The notes under the pieces: generated by a model
Seen by the model: only the letters and a program-made list of their open reading frames with translations
Told to the model about the DNA's origin: nothing
Databases searched by the model: none
DNA from: Anaerolineales bacterium
Lineage (GTDB): Bacteria > Chloroflexota > Anaerolineae > Anaerolineales > Villigracilaceae
Direction: 5' to 3'
Length of the DNA: 64,000 nucleotides
Assembly (NCBI GenBank): GCA_013360875.1
Contig: JABWAU010000004.1
Coordinates: forward strand, 22,715 to 86,714
Program-made: the position numbers and the translations under genes
In this document: piece by piece, positions 12,409 to 35,105 of the stretch
How positions within the stretch are numbered: the stretch's first letter is position 1
How the letters are laid out: each line of letters opens with the position of its first letter

Positions 12409-12413
12409 GTGGC

Positions 12414-12452
12414 AGTGATCAGTGATCAGTGATCAGTGATCAGTGATCAGTG
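12414..12452. repeat. Heptanucleotide tandem repeat (AGTGATC)5
   Basis: Five perfect AGTGATC units plus a partial one; covers the stop codon of the adjacent minus-strand ORF. Confidence 0.95.
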
Positions 12453-12725: not shown

Positions 12726-13514
12726 TCACAACGGCATCTGCACCAATCCTCCGTCGAACATCAGGGCATGACCGTGAATGAACGAGGCGGCGGGCGAAGC
12801 CAGCCAGACCGCAGCGCGCGCGAACTCTTCCACGGTGCCCATGCGCCTCAACGGGATTTCGCTTGAAATTTTGGCGGCTTCCTCTTCCGGGGTGGTGCCG
12901 GCCCGGGCGGCGCGGTCAGCCATCAGTTGTTCGACGCGTTCCGTCCACGTCCAGGCGGGGTTGATCGAGTTGACGCGGATGCCCTTCGGTCCCAGTTCGT
13001 TCGCCAGCGATTTTATGAATCCGATCACCGCCAGGCGCAGGGCGTTCGAGAGGATCAGATTGTCCAATGGTTGTTTGATCAGATACGACTGTGACGTGAC
13101 GATGCTTCCCTCGCCCTGCTCGACCATCTTCGGGACGACGGCATAACATAACCGGACCGCGCTCATCAGGGTCAGGTTTGCGGCGACCTCCCAGTCTTTG
13201 GCATCGAGCGAAAGAAAGTTACCCGGCTTGGGTCCGCCAGCGTTGTTGAACAGGATGTCAATGCGCCCGAATTCCTCGAGCGTCTTCGCGACGACGTTTT
13301 CTATATCATCGGCGTGCGTGAGATCGCCTCTTACCGCCAGGACGTCTGCTCCCGTTTCCTTTGAGATTTCCTTCGCTGCAACTTCGATCAGCTCACTGCG
13401 GGCGCACATCGCCACCTTTGCGCCTTCACGCGCGAATTCGCGCGCAGTGGCTTTGCCCAGTCCCTTCGACGCGGCGGTTACGAGGGCTACTTTATCTTTC
13501 AATCCCAAATCCAT
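12726..13514 (-). CDS. SDR-family oxidoreductase
   Basis: VALVTAASKGLGKATAREFAREGAKVAMCAR; NNAGGPKPG; start at MDLGLKDK with GGAGG RBS (the upstream part of the ORF is repeat sequence). Confidence 0.9.
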   Translation of the reverse strand: MDLGLKDKVALVTAASKGLGKATAREFAREGAKVAMCARSELIEVAAKEISKETGADVLAVRGDLTHADDIENVVAKTLEEFGRIDILFNNAGGPKPGNFLSLDAKDWEVAANLTLMSAVRLCYAVVPKMVEQGEGSIVTSQSYLIKQPLDNLILSNALRLAVIGFIKSLANELGPKGIRVNSINPAWTWTERVEQLMADRAARAGTTPEEEAAKISSEIPLRRMGTVEEFARAAVWLASPAASFIHGHALMFDGGLVQMPL

Positions 13515-13544
13515 GTGTTCCTCCGTGGGGGGTGTGGATGAGTA

Positions 13545-13617
13545 AAAGCATATACAGGTAGATAGGTACACAAGTAGACATGTACACAAATAGGCACCTG
13601 TGTACCTGTTTACCTCC
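13545..13617. repeat. Dispersed repeat, TACAGGTAG/GTACAC family, copy 1
   Basis: tacaggtagataggtacacaagtagacatgtacacaaataggcacctgtgtacctgtttacctcc; inverted arms. Confidence 0.7.
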
Positions 13618-13881
13618 TCAAAAAATCGCGTCCATCAGATCGCGTTCCCGCAACATGCGGCGTTTCCAGTTGTTGATGAGCGGAACGACGAAAGGCAAAA
13701 TCCGCATACTGTAATACGGCGGCAGGAGCGGTACGCCGAGTAGATCGCCGAAACTGATCAGCACGAAGAGATGCTCCAACCCTCCGCGCTGACGCGCCAG
13801 CGTCCGCACCTGGTCGTGGATCGCCAGTCCGTAAAGGATTTCGCGTGAGGTATTGAAGAAACGTGAGAAGACGGTTGTCAT
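13618..13881 (-). CDS. Small conserved protein of the ArsA-associated family (paralogue A)
   Basis: ILYGLAIHDQ..., GGLEHLFVLISFGDLLGVPLLPPYYSMRILPFVVPLINNWKRRMLRERDLMDAIF aligns by eye with 15971..16243 and 16322..16615. Confidence 0.75.
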   Translation of the reverse strand: MTTVFSRFFNTSREILYGLAIHDQVRTLARQRGGLEHLFVLISFGDLLGVPLLPPYYSMRILPFVVPLINNWKRRMLRERDLMDAIF

Positions 13882-13884
13882 GTG

Positions 13885-13970
13885 GAAGTACAAAAGCAGA
13901 CAAGCATACAGGTAGGTAAGTACACAGGTACACAAGTTTCACACGTGTTTACCTGTCTACCTGTGCACCC
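13885..13970. repeat. Dispersed repeat, TACAGGTAG/GTACAC family, copy 2
   Basis: catacaggtaggtaagtacacaggtacacaagtttcacacgtgtttacctgtctacctgtgcac. Confidence 0.7.
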
Positions 13971-13976
13971 ATCCAT

Positions 13977-14972
13977 TCAAACGAACAGCGCATCTCCCAT
14001 TCGTGTGAGGGAATCCGTCCCGCGCACTTCGTTTTCATAGAGCGGAATGGTCGAGCGCACCATGCCCTCGAACTTCTGCCACACGTCGTCCATGTAGCGG
14101 TCCTGCATCGCCACACGGTTTTTCACAAAGTCCGGAGACTTGTCGCTCACCTGTGCCTGGTCAATCAGCATGTTGACGATCACGCCGCCGACCGGGATGC
14201 CGAAATCGTGGAACCAGCCGATGAAGCGCGTGATGACCGCGATGGGCAATGCCTCCGCCAGCGTCACGAAGAAGAACGCGGTCAGTTCGTCGTTGGTGAG
14301 CAGTTTTTGCGCCTGTCCCATGCGGTCGCGGAACGAGACGAGATAATCCATTAGTGGGTCGGCTTCCTTTTTCTTGGTGAAGGAAAGCAGTTCGCGCAGG
14401 GTGCGCGCCTCCTCGCGGCTCTTCAACATTTTATTGACCCACAGCGAATACACCTTGGACATCCCCAGCAGGCGGCGCGCGTTGGCGGTCGGCGCGGTGT
14501 CGAAGACGTACACGTCGTACTCGTCGCGCAGCATCAGGTCCACCATGTTCTCGAACATGGCGGATTCTTCGAAAGCGGGGTTCATCGTCGCCGATTCAAC
14601 GAAGTCCTCCGCCTTGGTGGAAATATCCGCGAATTTCAGGAACCACTGGATCTTGTCGCGTATCTCCTGCTTGGAGCGTTCGATGGTTTCCTTGGTGTCA
14701 ATTTCGTAAGCCCACAGATTCGGAACGCCGTTCACCTGCGTCGGTTTTCCGAAAACATTCTGGCTCAACAATCCGCTCAAACTATGCACTGGATTCGTGG
14801 AGGCGAGCATCACGCGCTTTCCCTGCTTCGCCAGCCAGATCGCCGTCGCGCCAGCCATCACGGTCTTGCCAACTCCGCCTTTGCCGCCGAAGAATACGTA
14901 GCGCAGTTTGTCATGCTCCTTGACGTAATTTTTCATGGAAGTTTCAATCGCTTTTGCGGTCTTTGCAGTCAT
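13977..14972 (-). CDS. ArsA/Get3-like ATPase 1 (switch-I Asp replaced by Asn)
   Basis: FFGGKGGVGKTVMAGATAIWLAKQGKRVMLASTNPVHSLSG; VFDTAPTANARRLLGM; FVKNRVAMQDRYMDDVWQKF. Confidence 0.88.
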   Translation of the reverse strand: MTAKTAKAIETSMKNYVKEHDKLRYVFFGGKGGVGKTVMAGATAIWLAKQGKRVMLASTNPVHSLSGLLSQNVFGKPTQVNGVPNLWAYEIDTKETIERSKQEIRDKIQWFLKFADISTKAEDFVESATMNPAFEESAMFENMVDLMLRDEYDVYVFDTAPTANARRLLGMSKVYSLWVNKMLKSREEARTLRELLSFTKKKEADPLMDYLVSFRDRMGQAQKLLTNDELTAFFFVTLAEALPIAVITRFIGWFHDFGIPVGGVIVNMLIDQAQVSDKSPDFVKNRVAMQDRYMDDVWQKFEGMVRSTIPLYENEVRGTDSLTRMGDALFV

Positions 14973-14981
14973 CGCTTCCTC

Positions 14982-15956
14982 CTACGCCCCGTACATGATC
15001 TCGGACAGTTTCCTGATCATGTCCAATCCCGTCACGTCGCGTTCCAATTCGGGTACGTGCGCAGCAACCTGCTTCCCGAACGTTTCGTCAATTTGCTTCA
15101 GGTATTTATCCTGCATCTCGATTCGGTTTTTGAGGTAAGGCGGTATGTTCTGTGTGAGCAATTCGCGCGGCACGACGCGGTTGACGACGTAACCCATGAT
15201 CGGCACGTCGAATTTGGCGAACAGGTCCGCCGCCTTGGCTGTATCTATCAGGATCATTTCTTCGGGGATGACCACGAAGAAGAAACCGGTCTTCTCCTTG
15301 TCGGTCAGAATTCGAGACGAAGCGTTGATGCGTCCGCGGATGTATTGCAGTTCGTTCAGGATGGCATCCTCCTCGGTCTCCTTCTCGCGCTTCAGCCTGG
15401 ATACCATTTCCTCGTATTCGCGCATCTCCTCGCGCAGTTTGGTGATCTTATTGATCCACTCATCGTAGACCTTCGCCATGCTCAGGTAATACAGCGCGTG
15501 CCCGAGCGGCACGAGGTCGTAAATGTAGTAATCGTAGTTGCCCTCCACCACGATATCCACCACTGCGTCGAAGATGGCGCTTTCCTCCATCGCCGGTTCC
15601 GCGGACGCAGCCTGGATGTATTGTTCGATCTCATCGGGGACTTCGTCGAAGCCGTACATGTCGAGGATCTTCTTTCGGATCTCCCCCTGATAGGCTTTGA
15701 TGTGCTGGTCGGCGTCAATTTCCTGAGCCCACAGGTTCTCCATGATCTTGACAGGTCCCTTGCCGAAAATATCCTTCTGAAAAATATCGGACAGACTCGC
15801 CTGCGGATCAACAGAGAAGACCAGCACCTTCTTTCCCTGTTGAGCCAGCCAATAGGCAGTCGCGGCGGAGAAGGTGGTCTTCCCCAGCCCGCCTTTGCCG
15901 CCGAACATGATGTAGCGGCGTTCGGGGTGTTCCTCGAAGATTCGTTTGAGTGTCAT
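14982..15956 (-). CDS. ArsA/Get3-like ATPase 2
   Basis: MFGGKGGLGKTTFSAATAYWLAQQGKKVLVFSVDPQASLSDIF; IYDLVPLGHALYYLSMAKVY; YLKNRIEMQDKYLKQIDETFG. Start at MTLKRIFEEHP. Confidence 0.88.
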   Translation of the reverse strand: MTLKRIFEEHPERRYIMFGGKGGLGKTTFSAATAYWLAQQGKKVLVFSVDPQASLSDIFQKDIFGKGPVKIMENLWAQEIDADQHIKAYQGEIRKKILDMYGFDEVPDEIEQYIQAASAEPAMEESAIFDAVVDIVVEGNYDYYIYDLVPLGHALYYLSMAKVYDEWINKITKLREEMREYEEMVSRLKREKETEEDAILNELQYIRGRINASSRILTDKEKTGFFFVVIPEEMILIDTAKAADLFAKFDVPIMGYVVNRVVPRELLTQNIPPYLKNRIEMQDKYLKQIDETFGKQVAAHVPELERDVTGLDMIRKLSEIMYGA

Positions 15957-15970
15957 TGGGGACTCCCGAT

Positions 15971-16243
15971 TTAGAACATCGCGTCCGAAACGTCTTTCTC
16001 GCGCAACAAGCGTCGCTTCCAGGTCGAGATCTGCGGCACGACATACGGAAGCAGGCGCAGGCTGTAATACGGTGGCAGGATCGGGATGCCGATCATGTCG
16101 CCCATCGTGATCAGGATGAAGAGATGCTCCATGCTGGCGCGTGTCCGCAGGGCGTAACGGCTCATGTCGTGCGACGCCATGCCATAGATGATTTCCTTCA
16201 TATTTTGCCAAAAACTTTTCTTTTCTTCTTCAGTCATGTTCAT
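15971..16243 (-). CDS. Small conserved protein of the ArsA-associated family (paralogue B)
   Basis: IIYGMASHDMSRYALRTRASMEHLFILITMGDMIGIPILPPYYSLRLLPYVVPQISTWKRRLLREKDVSDAMF. Confidence 0.75.
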   Translation of the reverse strand: MNMTEEEKKSFWQNMKEIIYGMASHDMSRYALRTRASMEHLFILITMGDMIGIPILPPYYSLRLLPYVVPQISTWKRRLLREKDVSDAMF

Positions 16244-16255
16244 TTTCCTTTCTTT

Positions 16256-16316
16256 GCCGCGCAGGCGACATTCTCTTACGCCGACGGACACGCGAGAGAA
16301 CGTATCCTACGCATAA
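16256..16316. repeat. Dispersed palindromic repeat (TTCTCTTACGCCGACGG... family)
   Basis: cgcgcaggcgacattctcttacgccgacggacacgcgagagaacgtatcctacgc; related to 7567..7625. Confidence 0.6.
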
Positions 16317-16321
16317 AATAT

Positions 16322-16615
16322 CTAAATTCCATCCAAATGATAATCATGTTCATCGCTAAACTCGCGTTCGCGCAGGACGCGTCGTTTCCACGTTTCGATG
16401 TGGGGGACGATATAAGGCAGCAAACGAAGACTATAATACGGCGGCAAAACAGGTACGCCGATCATATCTCCCACCGTGCCGAGCATGAACAGGCTTTCGA
16501 GGCTGGCTCGCATTTCCATGGCGTGATGCGCAAACTCCATCCCGAGCATGCCGTATAAAAATTCGCGCACAGCCTGCCAGAGCGATTTTTTTTCTGGTTG
16601 CCTCGACACATTCAT
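16322..16615 (-). CDS. Small conserved protein of the ArsA-associated family (paralogue C)
   Basis: FLYGMLGMEFAHHAMEMRASLESLFMLGTVGDMIGVPVLPPYYSLRLLPYIVPHIETWKRRVLREREFSDE. Confidence 0.75.
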   Translation of the reverse strand: MNVSRQPEKKSLWQAVREFLYGMLGMEFAHHAMEMRASLESLFMLGTVGDMIGVPVLPPYYSLRLLPYIVPHIETWKRRVLREREFSDEHDYHLDGI

Positions 16616-16654: not shown

Positions 16655-17305
16655 ATGAATTCACAAGCGATCATCATCATTGCAGTCGCCGTCTTCATGG
16701 GCTGGTTTGCCATCGGCATGATCTACAACCTGCGGCGCGGCGACAAACTTCTAAAATGGATGCAGGACGGCTTGCCGCTCATCGGTCAGCGCACCACCTT
16801 CCGCTGGCTGGGCAGTTCCGTTGCCGAGATGGGCATTGCAAAAGCAAAGCGCCCCTTTCACCGCATGGATGTCCTGATCGTTCTCAAGCCGCGCGACGTT
16901 TTTTGGATGACGCTCATCGCGCTTTTTCAAAGACGCAGCGACATCCTGATCTTCCGCGCCGCCCTTGGCACGCCTCCGCTTTTGGACCTCGAACTTGCGG
17001 ACCCAAAAACCTGGAGCGGACGCGAAGCCCTGGCAAAAGCAACCAAACGCGGGTGGGAGGGAACCGATTATCACGGTCTGCGGTTAATGGCTCCCAAGGG
17101 GTTGATCAATCTCGCCGCCTCCACTGTGGACCAGCTCGCCGCTCCCATGCAGGCGTTTTCGCCTCGCTTCGTTCGTCTCGGCTTGCGCAAGACCTCCCCA
17201 AATATGGAAGTGCACCTGCCGTTCCCCAACCCGAATGAAACGGACGCCAAAACCTACTTTCAGTCCCTGTGCAATTTGGGACGCGCGATCGGCGAACGGA
17301 ATTAG
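16655..17305 (+). CDS. Uncharacterised protein with N-terminal TM helix, divergent from the ArsA-like locus
   Basis: MNSQAIIIIAVAVFMGWFAIGMIYNLRRGDKLLKWMQDGLP start; codon-consistent ORF. Confidence 0.6.
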   Translation: MNSQAIIIIAVAVFMGWFAIGMIYNLRRGDKLLKWMQDGLPLIGQRTTFRWLGSSVAEMGIAKAKRPFHRMDVLIVLKPRDVFWMTLIALFQRRSDILIFRAALGTPPLLDLELADPKTWSGREALAKATKRGWEGTDYHGLRLMAPKGLINLAASTVDQLAAPMQAFSPRFVRLGLRKTSPNMEVHLPFPNPNETDAKTYFQSLCNLGRAIGERN

Positions 17306-17349: not shown

Positions 17350-19269
17350 CTAATCCGTCGCCGCGGCGGCTTTCCGAGTCTTTCCGCCGCTGGCGTAACG
17401 TTGATAGGCCTTGTAACCATCCCAGCCGATGAAGAGAGCGGTGACGAACAACAGTCCGGCAATGACGATCATTGCCCATGCGCCGGTTGCCGCCGCGCCG
17501 CCCTTTGGCACGATGGTCACGAACAGGTTGCGCGCTGTGACCAAGGTTGCAGCCAGCGTGGTGATGTACATGAACAATGTGGGCCACAGGGCGAAGGCAG
17601 GATTCTTCTTTTGCTCCCTCAACCAGACCGTGACGATTAGCAGGCTAAGCGCCGCCATGAGTTGATTCGCCGCGCCGAACAACTGCCACAGATACACCCA
17701 CGTGCCGGTCAATACCAACAGCATGGTCAACACCATCGAAGTGACGGTCGAGACGTGCATGTTCTTGAAGACCGGGACCGCGTCACCGACCCACTCCGAG
17801 AGCGTCACTCGCATCACGCGGAAGATCAACTGCGTCACCGTCAACACGATGACCATGAACGCGCCGAATCCGAGCGCCGTGCCGAAGGTTCTGAAATCGG
17901 GACCGAAGAGTACCGTCAGCAAGGTGCCGACCCCCGCCGCGAAGCGTCCCGCGCCGCCGCCCGTTCCCACAATGGAGACCGCCACCAGGGAAAGCAAACC
18001 GAGCGTGTTCTCGGTGAACATCGCGCCGCCGCCGACCGGCAAGCCGTCGGTCTCATATTCCAACTGGCGGGCAGTGCCGATGGAGCCGATCAGCGCGTGC
18101 CAGCCGGAGATCGAACCGCAGGCGATGGTCACGAACAGCATGGGCCAAAGCGGTTGCCAGGCTTTGGCCGCATCGTAGGCAAAGCCCCACGTAATGAGCG
18201 GCTTGAGTTGAAATGTCGCGACTTTAACGGTTTCCCCGGCCGCGTTCACGGCGGTTGTGCCGAGGATCGGCGCCAGCACCGCGCCGAGGGCGCTAAGTCC
18301 GATCGTCAACAGCGTGATCCAGAAGCCGATGTAGTTGACCGGCTGGGCGAAGCGCCAGATGGGCAGGGTGGCGGCAAGATAAGAGAAGGCAAGGATGAAC
18401 AACGCCCAGAACAGGTAGGCGGGCATCGTCTTGATGGCGCCGGTCGCCGCGTCATACACCGCCGTGGTAGGACGTACGCCTTCCGCGTTGGGTGGGGGGA
18501 TGCGCGGGTCGGCATTGGTCGGATCGAAGACGGTCATCACCGAATTACCGCCGGTTAGATTGTTGACCGCGTTGTTGAAAGCCACGACCGCGCCGTTGAT
18601 GGGTCCGACCCATTGAACGGCTCTGGTCTCGGGGTTGATCGTGCTGCCAAAGGGACCGAAGACCATCGCCGCCACGGTCACGATCACGACGATCGCCGTC
18701 ACCAGGATCAGGTCCATCTTCCATTTGTAGAGCATCTGACCAGCCAACAGACCCATGAGGCCGAGCATGATGATGCCGAACGGCACGTCGGGGCGGGCAA
18801 CCATCAGGGCGGACATGATGCCCATGAACGCGCCAGCCACCAGCAACAGGTAGAAGAAGATGAACGTGAACAGGATGGTGCGGGTGCGCGGCGCGATCAA
18901 CTTGTGACTGATGGCGCTCAGGCTGTTGCCGTCGTTGCGGACGGCGACCATGATGGCGCTGTAATCGCTCACCCATCCGATGAACGAAACGCCGATAAGC
19001 AGCCACAACAGGGAGGGCGCCCAGCCCCACAGGTTTGCCGCCGTAATGGGACCCACGATGGGACCCGCCGCGGCGATGGACTTGAAGTGATAACCGTACA
19101 GCACGTTGCGGCTGGTCGGCATGAAGTCCACCCCATCCATGTACATTTTTGCGGGGGTGGCTTTCTTCGCATCCGACTGGATGACATCCCGGTCGATGCG
19201 TTTGGCATAGAAGTTGTATGCCACATAAATGACGATCGCTGCAATCACAACGATCCACAAGGTGTTCAT
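17350..19269 (-). CDS. cstA: Carbon starvation protein CstA-type transporter
   Basis: GYHFKSIAAAGPIVGPITAANLWGW; long multi-TM protein; SGWHALIGSIGTARQL. Confidence 0.93.
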   Translation of the reverse strand: MNTLWIVVIAAIVIYVAYNFYAKRIDRDVIQSDAKKATPAKMYMDGVDFMPTSRNVLYGYHFKSIAAAGPIVGPITAANLWGWAPSLLWLLIGVSFIGWVSDYSAIMVAVRNDGNSLSAISHKLIAPRTRTILFTFIFFYLLLVAGAFMGIMSALMVARPDVPFGIIMLGLMGLLAGQMLYKWKMDLILVTAIVVIVTVAAMVFGPFGSTINPETRAVQWVGPINGAVVAFNNAVNNLTGGNSVMTVFDPTNADPRIPPPNAEGVRPTTAVYDAATGAIKTMPAYLFWALFILAFSYLAATLPIWRFAQPVNYIGFWITLLTIGLSALGAVLAPILGTTAVNAAGETVKVATFQLKPLITWGFAYDAAKAWQPLWPMLFVTIACGSISGWHALIGSIGTARQLEYETDGLPVGGGAMFTENTLGLLSLVAVSIVGTGGGAGRFAAGVGTLLTVLFGPDFRTFGTALGFGAFMVIVLTVTQLIFRVMRVTLSEWVGDAVPVFKNMHVSTVTSMVLTMLLVLTGTWVYLWQLFGAANQLMAALSLLIVTVWLREQKKNPAFALWPTLFMYITTLAATLVTARNLFVTIVPKGGAAATGAWAMIVIAGLLFVTALFIGWDGYKAYQRYASGGKTRKAAAATD

Positions 19270-19420: not shown

Positions 19421-19918
19421 TCATCCAATCTCCGTCGGTTGACCCGCCAACTGACGGGCAATCTCCTCGCTGGCAGATGGCAGCATCTGGCTCCCGATAA
19501 AACGGGATCTGCCGTTCACAATGACCGCCGGATAATGGCGGGCGTTGTACTTCAACGATTTGTAAAACCCCTCCACGGACGCCGCATCAATCACCTTGAG
19601 GACGATGTTGTCGCAGTGCGCCCGGAACATTTCCTTCACCCACTCTGATACGACCTGATACTCCCGCCTCAACTCTTCGGGCAGACTGCTCTCCAATTGC
19701 TCCTCCTGCACGCGGTTCGACTTGCCCATCTCCCGCCACGCCACTTCACAATGGGTGCAGTGGTAATAGGCGGTGGGCGCGTAGGCGATGATCTCGACCA
19801 GTAAGGGCTTGTCCTGCGAAGTCCTCGTAGAGGGAGTTTTATCGAAGGGCTTGTCCTGAGCGGCGTCGAAGGGTTTGTTCATCATTCGCTCCTGTAAAAT
19901 AAAAACGCCAGCGAGCAT
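19421..19918 (-). CDS. Thioredoxin-fold-like protein with repeat-derived N-terminus
   Basis: VEIIAYAPTAYYHCTHCEVAW (CxxC), YPAVIVNGRSRFIGSQMLP; N-terminus PFDAAQDKPFDKTPSTRTSQDKP is encoded by a dispersed repeat. Confidence 0.5.
   Translation of the reverse strand: MLAGVFILQERMMNKPFDAAQDKPFDKTPSTRTSQDKPLLVEIIAYAPTAYYHCTHCEVAWREMGKSNRVQEEQLESSLPEELRREYQVVSEWVKEMFRAHCDNIVLKVIDAASVEGFYKSLKYNARHYPAVIVNGRSRFIGSQMLPSASEEIARQLAGQPTEIG
19803..19875. repeat. GGCTTGTCCTGAGCGGCGTCGAAGGG dispersed repeat
   Basis: gggcttgtcctgcgaag...atcgaagggcttgtcctgagcggcgtcgaaggg; same core appears inside uvrA. Confidence 0.7.
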
Positions 19919-21339: not shown

Positions 21340-21412
21340 GGTAAGTGTACGTGCATACAGGTATACAGGTGTTTCCATGGTATCTGTCTACCCATGTACC
21401 TGCACTCCCTCC
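21340..21412. repeat. Dispersed repeat, TACAGGTA/GTAC family, copy 3
   Basis: gtaagtgtacgtgcatacaggtatacaggtgtttccatggtatctgtctacccatgtacctgcac; encodes the last residues of UvrA. Confidence 0.6.
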
Positions 21413-34442: not shown

Positions 34443-35105
34443 ATGCAGAGATCATTTCGCTTTATGGCGGTCGCGTTGCTTCTTGGAAGCTATCTGCTAA
34501 GCGCGTGCGCAGGCACGCCGACCCAAGCAGGCGGTCCCGGACAGGTTCCGACGGTCAACTCCAATGAGGTCCTGGATGCGGGAAGCAACGGCAACGATTC
34601 CAATTCCAACGACGACAATGCCAACACCAACGCGAACGACAACGCCGCCAACGACAATACCAATGTCAACGATAACGCCAACGACAACACGGGCGCGGAA
34701 CAGGAATTTCACGGCGTCGTGGAAGCCGTCACCGATACCTCGATCACGATCAACGGCGTGACGTATACCATCGCCGATTTCACGGAATTCAAGGATATCG
34801 TTTCCGTGGGCGACCAGGTCAAGATCCACGTGATCGTGGGCGCGGACGGCGCGCTGGTCATCCGTGAGATCGAACTGTCGTTGGGCGGCGACGACGACAA
34901 CTCGAACGACAACTCAAACGGCAATTCGAACGACAACGACGACGACGATGACAACTCGAACGGCAATTCGAACGACAACGACGATGACGACGACAACTCG
35001 AACAGCAATTCGAACGATAACGACGATGACAACGACAACTCCAATGACAATTCGAATGACGACGACGATAACGGCAATGACGACAATTCGAACGACAACG
35101 GTTAG
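34443..35105 (+). CDS. DUF5666-like lipoprotein with Asn/Asp-rich repetitive tail
   Basis: Lipobox LLSAC; FHGVVEAVTDTSITINGVTYTIADFTEFKDIVSVGDQVKIHV; tail DDDNSNGNSNDN repeats. Confidence 0.75.
   Translation: MQRSFRFMAVALLLGSYLLSACAGTPTQAGGPGQVPTVNSNEVLDAGSNGNDSNSNDDNANTNANDNAANDNTNVNDNANDNTGAEQEFHGVVEAVTDTSITINGVTYTIADFTEFKDIVSVGDQVKIHVIVGADGALVIREIELSLGGDDDNSNDNSNGNSNDNDDDDDNSNGNSNDNDDDDDNSNSNSNDNDDDNDNSNDNSNDDDDNGNDDNSNDNG
34893..35030 (+). repeat. 42-bp tandem repeat encoding DDNSNGNSNDNDDD units
   Basis: GCAATTCGAACGACAACGAC anchors recur at 34921, 34963 and (variant) 35005. Confidence 0.85.

What the first reader, a model, noticed from the sequence alone, without database searches (positions are those of the whole stretch)
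13618..16615. Uncharacterised locus: two ArsA/Get3-like ATPases with three paralogous ~90-aa proteins
On the minus strand: small C (16322..16615), small B (15971..16243), ATPase 2 (14982..15956), ATPase 1 (13977..14972), small A (13618..13881). Seen directly: the three small proteins share (A/G)S(L/M)E(H/S)LF.L...GD(M/L)(I/L)G(V/I)P(V/I/L)LPPYYS(L/M)R(L/I)LP(Y/F)(V/I)VP.I..WKRR(M/L/V)LRE, and both ATPases have intact deviant Walker A GGKGG(V/L)GKT. Established: ArsA/Get3 ATPases work as pseudo-symmetric dimers that move metalloids or tail-anchored proteins. There is no ArsB, ArsR or ArsC here, so arsenite export is unlikely. Inference: the small proteins are membrane-peripheral/hairpin adaptors or clients of a heterodimeric Get3-like ATPase. 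I know of no described system with this composition.
Basis: partly seen in the sequence, partly recalled or inferred. Interest (0 to 1): 0.8.

Follow-up and report, generated by a model that had tools for sequence, protein, structure and literature searches.

The report
Paired Get3-like ATPases with CstA transporter
The five genes are part of a conserved bacterial gene cluster built around CstA, a pyruvate- or peptide-type transporter, in which two ATPase subunits (one of them carrying a natural ATPase-disabling substitution at the key residue) and a small linker-type protein accompany the transporter; such clusters were predicted in 2010 but, as far as found, never tested.

Summary
In detail: five intact minus-strand genes encode two Get3/ArsA-family ATPases and three homologous ~90-aa proteins. 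In 61 relatives, CstA, the ATPase pair and the small proteins occur in exactly the same 13 genomes. In 400 Chloroflexota genomes the system and CstA share 37 genomes; the other three cases are two canonical CstAs and one contig break. In 80 loci from several phyla the order is CstA - small B - ATPase2 - ATPase1, with optional extras. The small proteins are distant homologues of NCBIfam 'cory-CC-star', which sits between CstA and a single ArsA in other bacteria. That is the CstA-CstX-ArsA arrangement described by Castillo and Saier in 2010 (PMC2963123), so 'no described system' is wrong. New here: the two-ATPase form is invariantly asymmetric. ATPase1 carries Asn at the Get3 D57 position (72/72), ATPase2 keeps Asp (75/75), also in a deeply diverged clade; single-ATPase systems keep canonical motifs. 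Best explanation: a half-site ATPase heterodimer that energises or gates CstA through CstX linkers. Coupling and substrate are inferred, not shown.

The parts
17350..19269 (-). CstA-family transporter (PF02554), first and most constant gene of the system; ATG at 19269 (ORF extends to 19302 with a TTG start)
   Evidence: PF02554 E 6.6e-100; present in all 13 related genomes that carry the ATPases, and in none of the other 48
16322..16615 (-). small C (CstX paralogue C, 97 aa)
   Evidence: NF041419 E 6.8e-8, below curated cut-off
15971..16243 (-). small B (CstX, 90 aa), the only small protein kept in minimal loci and the most conserved
   Evidence: all 57 aligned small proteins match NF041419 at E <= 1e-3, best 9e-10
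14982..15956 (-). ATPase2, Get3/ArsA family, catalytic Asp kept (SVDP), switch II DLVPLGH
   Evidence: motifs invariant in 75/75 and 74/75 readable homologues
13977..14972 (-). ATPase1, Get3/ArsA family, Asn at the Get3 Asp57 position (STNP), switch II DTAPTAN
   Evidence: motifs invariant in 72/72 and 71/72 homologues
13618..13881 (-). small A (CstX paralogue A, 87 aa)
   Evidence: NF041419 E 2.8e-7; often downstream of ATPase1 in Anaerolineae-type loci
19421..19918 (-). accessory thioredoxin-fold protein with CxxC (HCTHC) and YPAVIV cis-Pro-like motif; conserved part 19421-19810, start codon uncertain
   Evidence: found in 11 of the related loci; invariant C18, C21, P94; AF2 pLDDT 85.7; Foldseek hits thioredoxins, probability about 1.0
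16655..17305 (+). accessory protein of about 215 aa with one N-terminal hydrophobic segment, opposite strand; possible counterpart of archaeal CstY (by size and topology only)
   Evidence: no Pfam match; in 11 related loci and many of the 80 loci
12726..13514 (-). short-chain dehydrogenase, frequent downstream neighbour; link to the system uncertain
   Evidence: PF13561 E 2.6e-55; in 9 related loci

Best explanation
The locus encodes a two-ATPase version of the CstA-CstX-ArsA system. CstA is a multi-pass carrier, by homology proton-coupled, for pyruvate or a related small metabolite or peptide. ATPase1 and ATPase2 form an obligate heterodimer with the ArsA/Get3 fold. Both bind ATP and close on each other, but only ATPase2 hydrolyses it, because ATPase1 has Asn where Get3 has its catalytic Asp57. 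One to three CstX proteins (small B, plus C and A here) sit at the membrane surface and link the ATPase to CstA, filling the slot that YbdD has in E. coli. ATP binding and one-site hydrolysis then energise or gate CstA, as ArsA does for the secondary carrier ArsB. Shown here: gene content and order, co-occurrence, family membership, invariant asymmetry of active-site motifs, predicted thioredoxin fold of the accessory protein. Inferred: heterodimer formation, physical coupling through CstX, ATP-dependent transport, substrate.
For: Co-occurrence: CstA, ATPase pair and small proteins in exactly the same 13 of 61 relatives (Fisher 1.5e-13, not corrected for phylogeny). In the same 400 Chloroflexota genomes: CstA 39, small 37, ATPase 37, pairwise overlap 36; G149, G179 and G251 are contig breaks, leaving only two canonical CstAs (G133, G220) without the system. 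G258, one contig, has CstA far from the ATPases yet keeps all parts, so the association is not only linkage. Order CstA - CstX - AT2 - AT1 is kept across several phyla, with CstA - small B - AT2 - AT1 as the minimal set. Single-ATPase relatives CstA - cory-CC-star - ArsA exist in Cytobacillus, Paracoccus and Pseudochrobactrum. D/N split invariant in 147 sequences and kept in the diverged clade L155-L158; AT1 and AT2 are sister clades, each 100/99. Get3 D57N binds ATP without hydrolysis (PMC12506534). E. coli CstA is driven by a proton gradient (PMC7730263) and needs the small protein YbdD (PMC5847655). ArsA energising CstA, with CstX as linker, was proposed in PMC2963123.
Against: No experiment links any ArsA homologue to CstA activity. 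E. coli CstA works without an ArsA, so ATP is not a general need of the family. The structure of small B could not be predicted with confidence (pLDDT 59.8), so no interface was tested. Genomic association also fits an assembly or insertion factor for CstA or CstX. The Asp-to-Asn reading rests on homology to Get3.
Confidence: 0.55

Rival explanations
1. Biogenesis: the ATPase pair is a Get3-like targeting or insertion chaperone dedicated to CstX and/or CstA, and has no role in transport once the complex is made.
For: Closest solved relatives are archaeal Get3 proteins (3zq6, 3ug6); CstX has a short hydrophobic stretch (max 19-residue hydropathy 1.45-1.67); strict co-occurrence with CstA fits a dedicated chaperone too.
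Against: The stretch that carries the Met-rich hydrophobic helix in archaeal Get3 (best 15-residue hydropathy 0.39-0.78) is shorter and polar here (-0.11 and 0.03). CstX has no C-terminal tail anchor. E. coli CstA is not known to need such a factor. A natural D57N subunit would be odd for a release cycle, though Get3 lacking CxxC can still target proteins (PMC10248533).
Confidence: 0.25
2. Regulation: the asymmetric ATPase and CstX act as a nucleotide-sensing brake or switch on CstA (energy state, or redox through the thioredoxin-like protein) rather than as an energy source.
For: One hydrolysis-incompetent site, multiple CstX paralogues and a CxxC thioredoxin-fold neighbour suit a sensor.
Against: No direct evidence; the thioredoxin gene is missing from minimal loci, and ATPase2 keeps the catalytic Asp.
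Confidence: 0.15
3. Arsenite or other metalloid efflux ATPase.
For: Family name only (PF02374).
Against: No ars genes; most homologues have no Cys at all (59/72 and 72/75) and none has CxxC; far below the ArsA equivalog cut-off (112 and 123 against 650 bits); almost invariably beside CstA.
Confidence: 0.02

Closest known systems
CstA-CstX-ArsA operons (Castillo and Saier 2010, PMC2963123)
   Same: Same three components: CstA, an ~90-aa CstX, single-domain ArsA homologues of ~330 aa; no ars genes; CstX proposed as linker and ArsA as energiser.
   Different: Most described cases have one ATPase, thought to be a homodimer; adjacent pairs were noted only for Pyrobaculum arsenaticum and Symbiobacterium and not interpreted. 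Here the pair is invariantly asymmetric, there are up to three CstX paralogues, and a thioredoxin-fold protein is added.
cory-CC-star protein, NCBIfam NF041419
   Same: All 57 aligned small proteins match its profile, and it sits between CstA and ArsA in Cytobacillus, Paracoccus and Pseudochrobactrum.
   Different: Score 30-34 against a cut-off of 80; the small proteins here never end in Cys-Cys (0/158).
ArsAB arsenite pump
   Same: ArsA-fold ATPase next to a secondary carrier.
   Different: Other carrier, no metal-site Cys, two separate asymmetric subunits instead of one fused protein.
Get3/TRC40
   Same: Fold, Walker A with intersubunit Lys, length.
   Different: No CxxC, polar client-helix region, Asp57 replaced in one subunit, cluster with a transporter.
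YbdD/YjiX (PF04328) with CstA/BtsT
   Same: Small partner needed by CstA; E. coli YbdD also ends in Cys-Cys like cory-CC-star.
   Different: No profile match to the small proteins; no YbdD above cut-off in the 61 relatives.

Membership tests
CstA-CstX-ArsA system (PMC2963123) | CstA-family transporter gene in the cluster | tested here: met
   PF02554 E 6.6e-100
CstA-CstX-ArsA system (PMC2963123) | single-domain ArsA homologue of about 330 aa in the same cluster, no ars genes | tested here: met
   324 and 331 aa, PF02374; two copies instead of one
CstA-CstX-ArsA system (PMC2963123) | CstX, about 90 aa, not found without CstA | tested here: met
   size, position and co-occurrence; homology to the CstA/ArsA-linked cory-CC-star protein P0006, 39.8 bits. 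The 2010 CstX sequences themselves could not be compared
CstA-CstX-ArsA system (PMC2963123) | ATP-dependent action on CstA | not testable with these tools
   also untested in the literature found
NF041419 cory-CC-star | score above curated cut-off of 80 bits | tested here: not met
   30-34 bits
NF041419 cory-CC-star | C-terminal Cys-Cys (inferred from the name and from three annotated members) | tested here: not met
   0 of 158
Arsenical pump ATPase ArsA (TIGR04291) | fused two-domain protein above 650 bits | tested here: not met
   112 and 123 bits, single domain
Arsenical pump ATPase ArsA (TIGR04291) | metalloid-site cysteines | tested here: not met
   no Cys in either window ATPase; almost none across homologues
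TRC40/GET3/ArsA family (TIGR00345) | subfamily score above 135 bits | tested here: met
   243 and 222 bits
Get3 tail-anchored protein targeting factor | CxxC zinc clasp | tested here: not met
   0 of 147; not strictly required, see PMC10248533
Get3 tail-anchored protein targeting factor | hydrophobic client helix | tested here: inconclusive
   shorter and more polar than archaeal Get3, but based on two reference sequences
YbdD/YjiX PF04328 | profile match | tested here: not met
   no Pfam match for the small proteins; E. coli YbdD does not match the small-protein profile

The most novel reading that the evidence does not exclude
An ATP-coupled carrier of a new subtype: a CstA-family secondary transporter gated or energised through CstX by a constitutively half-site Get3-type heterodimer, in which one subunit is permanently in an ATP-binding, non-hydrolysing form.
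Probability: 0.4. Interest if true: 0.8.

Novelty: new variant of a known kind. Interest (0 to 1): 0.6.

Why it matters
The 2010 proposal that ArsA-type ATPases energise CstA carriers has, as far as the searched library shows, never been tested. The two-ATPase form offers a clean handle: nature has already split ATP binding and hydrolysis between two genes, so single-gene and single-residue experiments can tell energising from targeting or gating. It would also show whether a widespread nutrient-uptake family can be switched from proton-driven to ATP-coupled, and it points to a role for an annotated family whose name says nothing about function (cory-CC-star).

Tried and rejected
Pfam found nothing for the small proteins; PADLOC gave only weak P-loop matches of the ATPases and no defence system. 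Structure prediction of small B from 57 sequences had low confidence (pLDDT 59.8, pTM 0.28), so no fold search was done with it. No solved structure matches CstA or the small-protein profile. A direct YbdD relationship of the small proteins was rejected, although YbdD and cory-CC-star both end in Cys-Cys. An ArsD-like identity of the thioredoxin-fold protein was considered; there was no ArsD Pfam match and the fold search returned thioredoxins in general, so it was not claimed. Distant small-like proteins in L053, L055 and L056 lie beside unrelated genes and were left out. Plasmid tblastn with small B found nothing.

Full report
What is there. The five reported genes exist as described. The two larger ones are Get3/ArsA-family ATPases (PF02374 257 and 234 bits; TIGR00345 243 and 222 bits), 36% identical to each other and closest among solved structures to archaeal Get3 proteins. 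The three small proteins are homologous to one another. They have no Pfam family, but all three match NCBIfam NF041419, 'cory-CC-star protein', at E 2e-8 to 3e-7, below its curated cut-off. All 57 relatives aligned match it too.

The missing partner. Further frequent neighbours are a thioredoxin-fold CxxC protein, an opposite-strand protein of about 215 aa, and a short-chain dehydrogenase. AlphaFold gave the thioredoxin-like protein pLDDT 85.7, and Foldseek matched thioredoxins.

Co-occurrence. In 61 whole genomes of relatives, the small proteins (two further weak hits, G036 and G054, are not of this type), the ATPase pair (the weak single hits in G033 and G049 are other ArsA proteins) and CstA occur in exactly the same 13 genomes, spread over three families and several genera. 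No genome has CstA alone, and none has YbdD (PF04328) above cut-off. In the same 400 Chloroflexota genomes at 80% completeness or more, CstA was found in 39, small proteins in 37 and ATPases in 37, with pairwise overlaps of 36 with CstA. Inspection explains three of the five mismatches as contig ends (G149, G179, G251). The other two, G133 and G220, carry a canonical CstA with no system. Fisher tests give 1.5e-13 and about 1e-46, without correction for shared ancestry. In G258, a single-contig genome, CstA lies far from the ATPase pair (3.297 Mb against 0.68 Mb) but all parts are kept, so the association does not depend on linkage.

Distribution. A scan of GTDB contigs found 416 stretches that encode relatives of the small proteins. 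The best 80 lie in MAGs labelled Chloroflexota, Acidobacteriota, Gemmatimonadota, Desulfobacterota or Thermodesulfobacteriota, Pseudomonadota and Bacteroidota; binning errors may affect single labels. Their gene order is nearly invariant: CstA, then optional thioredoxin-like and small C, then small B, ATPase2, ATPase1, then optional small A; L112 and L114 are rearranged. In Syntrophaceae and relatives only CstA - small B - ATPase2 - ATPase1 remain. These four genes are the core.

Asymmetry of the ATPases. The switch I motif is STNP in 72 of 72 readable ATPase1 sequences and SVDP in 75 of 75 ATPase2 sequences. Switch II is DTAPTAN in 71/72 and DLVPLGH in 74/75. Walker A is GGKGGVGKT in 72/72 and GGKGGLGKT in 75/75. 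No sequence has a CxxC, and most have no Cys. A clade only 43-46% identical in ATPase2 (L155-L158) keeps Asn in ATPase1 (SLNP) and Asp in ATPase2 (STDP). ATPase1 and ATPase2 form two sister clades, supported at 100/99 each and joined at 99/91; long branches among the outgroups make the rooting uncertain. The Asp aligns with Get3 Asp57, whose change to Asn allows ATP binding without hydrolysis (PMC12506534). By homology, therefore, ATPase1 should bind but not hydrolyse ATP and ATPase2 should hydrolyse it. The intersubunit Lys of the Walker A motif is present in both. In single-ATPase operons (Cytobacillus, Paracoccus, Pseudochrobactrum) the ATPase has fully canonical STDPAHN and DTAPTGHT.

What is known. 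Castillo and Saier 2010 (PMC2963123) described ArsA homologues encoded with CstA and CstX (about 90 aa), and in five archaea CstY (about 210 aa). They proposed that ArsA energises CstA with CstX as linker, and suggested homodimers. It is the only paper in the library that names CstX together with CstA. Public annotation confirms the arrangement: CstA - hypothetical - cory-CC-star - ArsA in Cytobacillus, CstA - cory-CC-star - ArsA in Paracoccus and Pseudochrobactrum. The Cytobacillus cory-CC-star matches the small-protein profile at 39.8 bits. So the small proteins are CstX-type proteins, and the window system is a two-ATPase variant of a predicted but untested kind. Differences from the cory-CC-star core: no terminal Cys-Cys (0/158), several paralogues, and the split ATPase.

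How it most likely works. E. coli CstA is a proton-driven pyruvate carrier (PMC7730263) that needs a small partner, YbdD (PMC5847655), which is not homologous by profile to the small proteins. ArsA converts a secondary carrier, ArsB, into an ATP-driven pump (established knowledge; summarised in PMC2963123). The simplest reading is the same logic here: a heterodimeric ATPase coupled by CstX to CstA. A chaperone role is less favoured, because the region that forms the hydrophobic client helix in archaeal Get3 is shorter and polar in both subunits and CstX has no tail anchor, but it is not excluded. The small-protein structure could not be predicted and no CstA structure was found in the PDB copy, so the interface remains untested.

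Verdict. Real, conserved and functionally coherent, but not an unknown composition: a new variant of a predicted, experimentally uncharacterised transporter-ATPase system, with an invariant active-site asymmetry as the new and testable feature.

Noticed in passing
window 13544-13615 and 13882-13964: Degenerate 8-bp-period tandem repeats (ACACAGGT/AGGTACAC type) flank the small A gene on both sides and extend its upstream open frame; a further short copy lies at 21355-21370.
   Followed up: partly
window 19800-19880: The N-terminus of the thioredoxin-fold gene contains an in-frame stretch reading FDAAQDKPFDKTPSTRTSQDKP that is absent or different in most relatives and looks like a repeated element translated in frame.
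   Followed up: partly
L057 7896-9794 (own genome C32): A fused two-half ArsA-like protein of 632 aa with canonical TTDPA and DTAPTGHT motifs in both halves, separate from the CstA system.
   Followed up: partly
L053 6058-6366, L055 about 1653-2006, L056 7752-8054: Distant small-protein-like ORFs ending ...ADLKHIGH or NPGHIGH, near SCO1/SenC, HD-domain or tRNA-synthetase genes, without CstA or ATPases; possibly a wider superfamily.
   Followed up: partly
L171 5904-6191: A hypothetical 95-aa protein between CstA and cory-CC-star in Cytobacillus; by eye it resembles the C-terminal half of the thioredoxin-fold accessory protein, not significant by profile.
   Followed up: partly
window 34586-35100: Long low-complexity arrays of ACGACAAC-type units inside or beside coding sequence.
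   Followed up: no
window 12413-12452: Perfect 7-bp tandem array CAGTGAT, 5.7 copies, upstream of the MurJ gene.
   Followed up: no
L171 6218-6475, L154 7214-7411: cory-CC-star/CstX and E. coli YbdD, two small CstA partners without profile similarity, both end in Arg-Cys-Cys; convergence or very remote relation not tested.
   Followed up: partly
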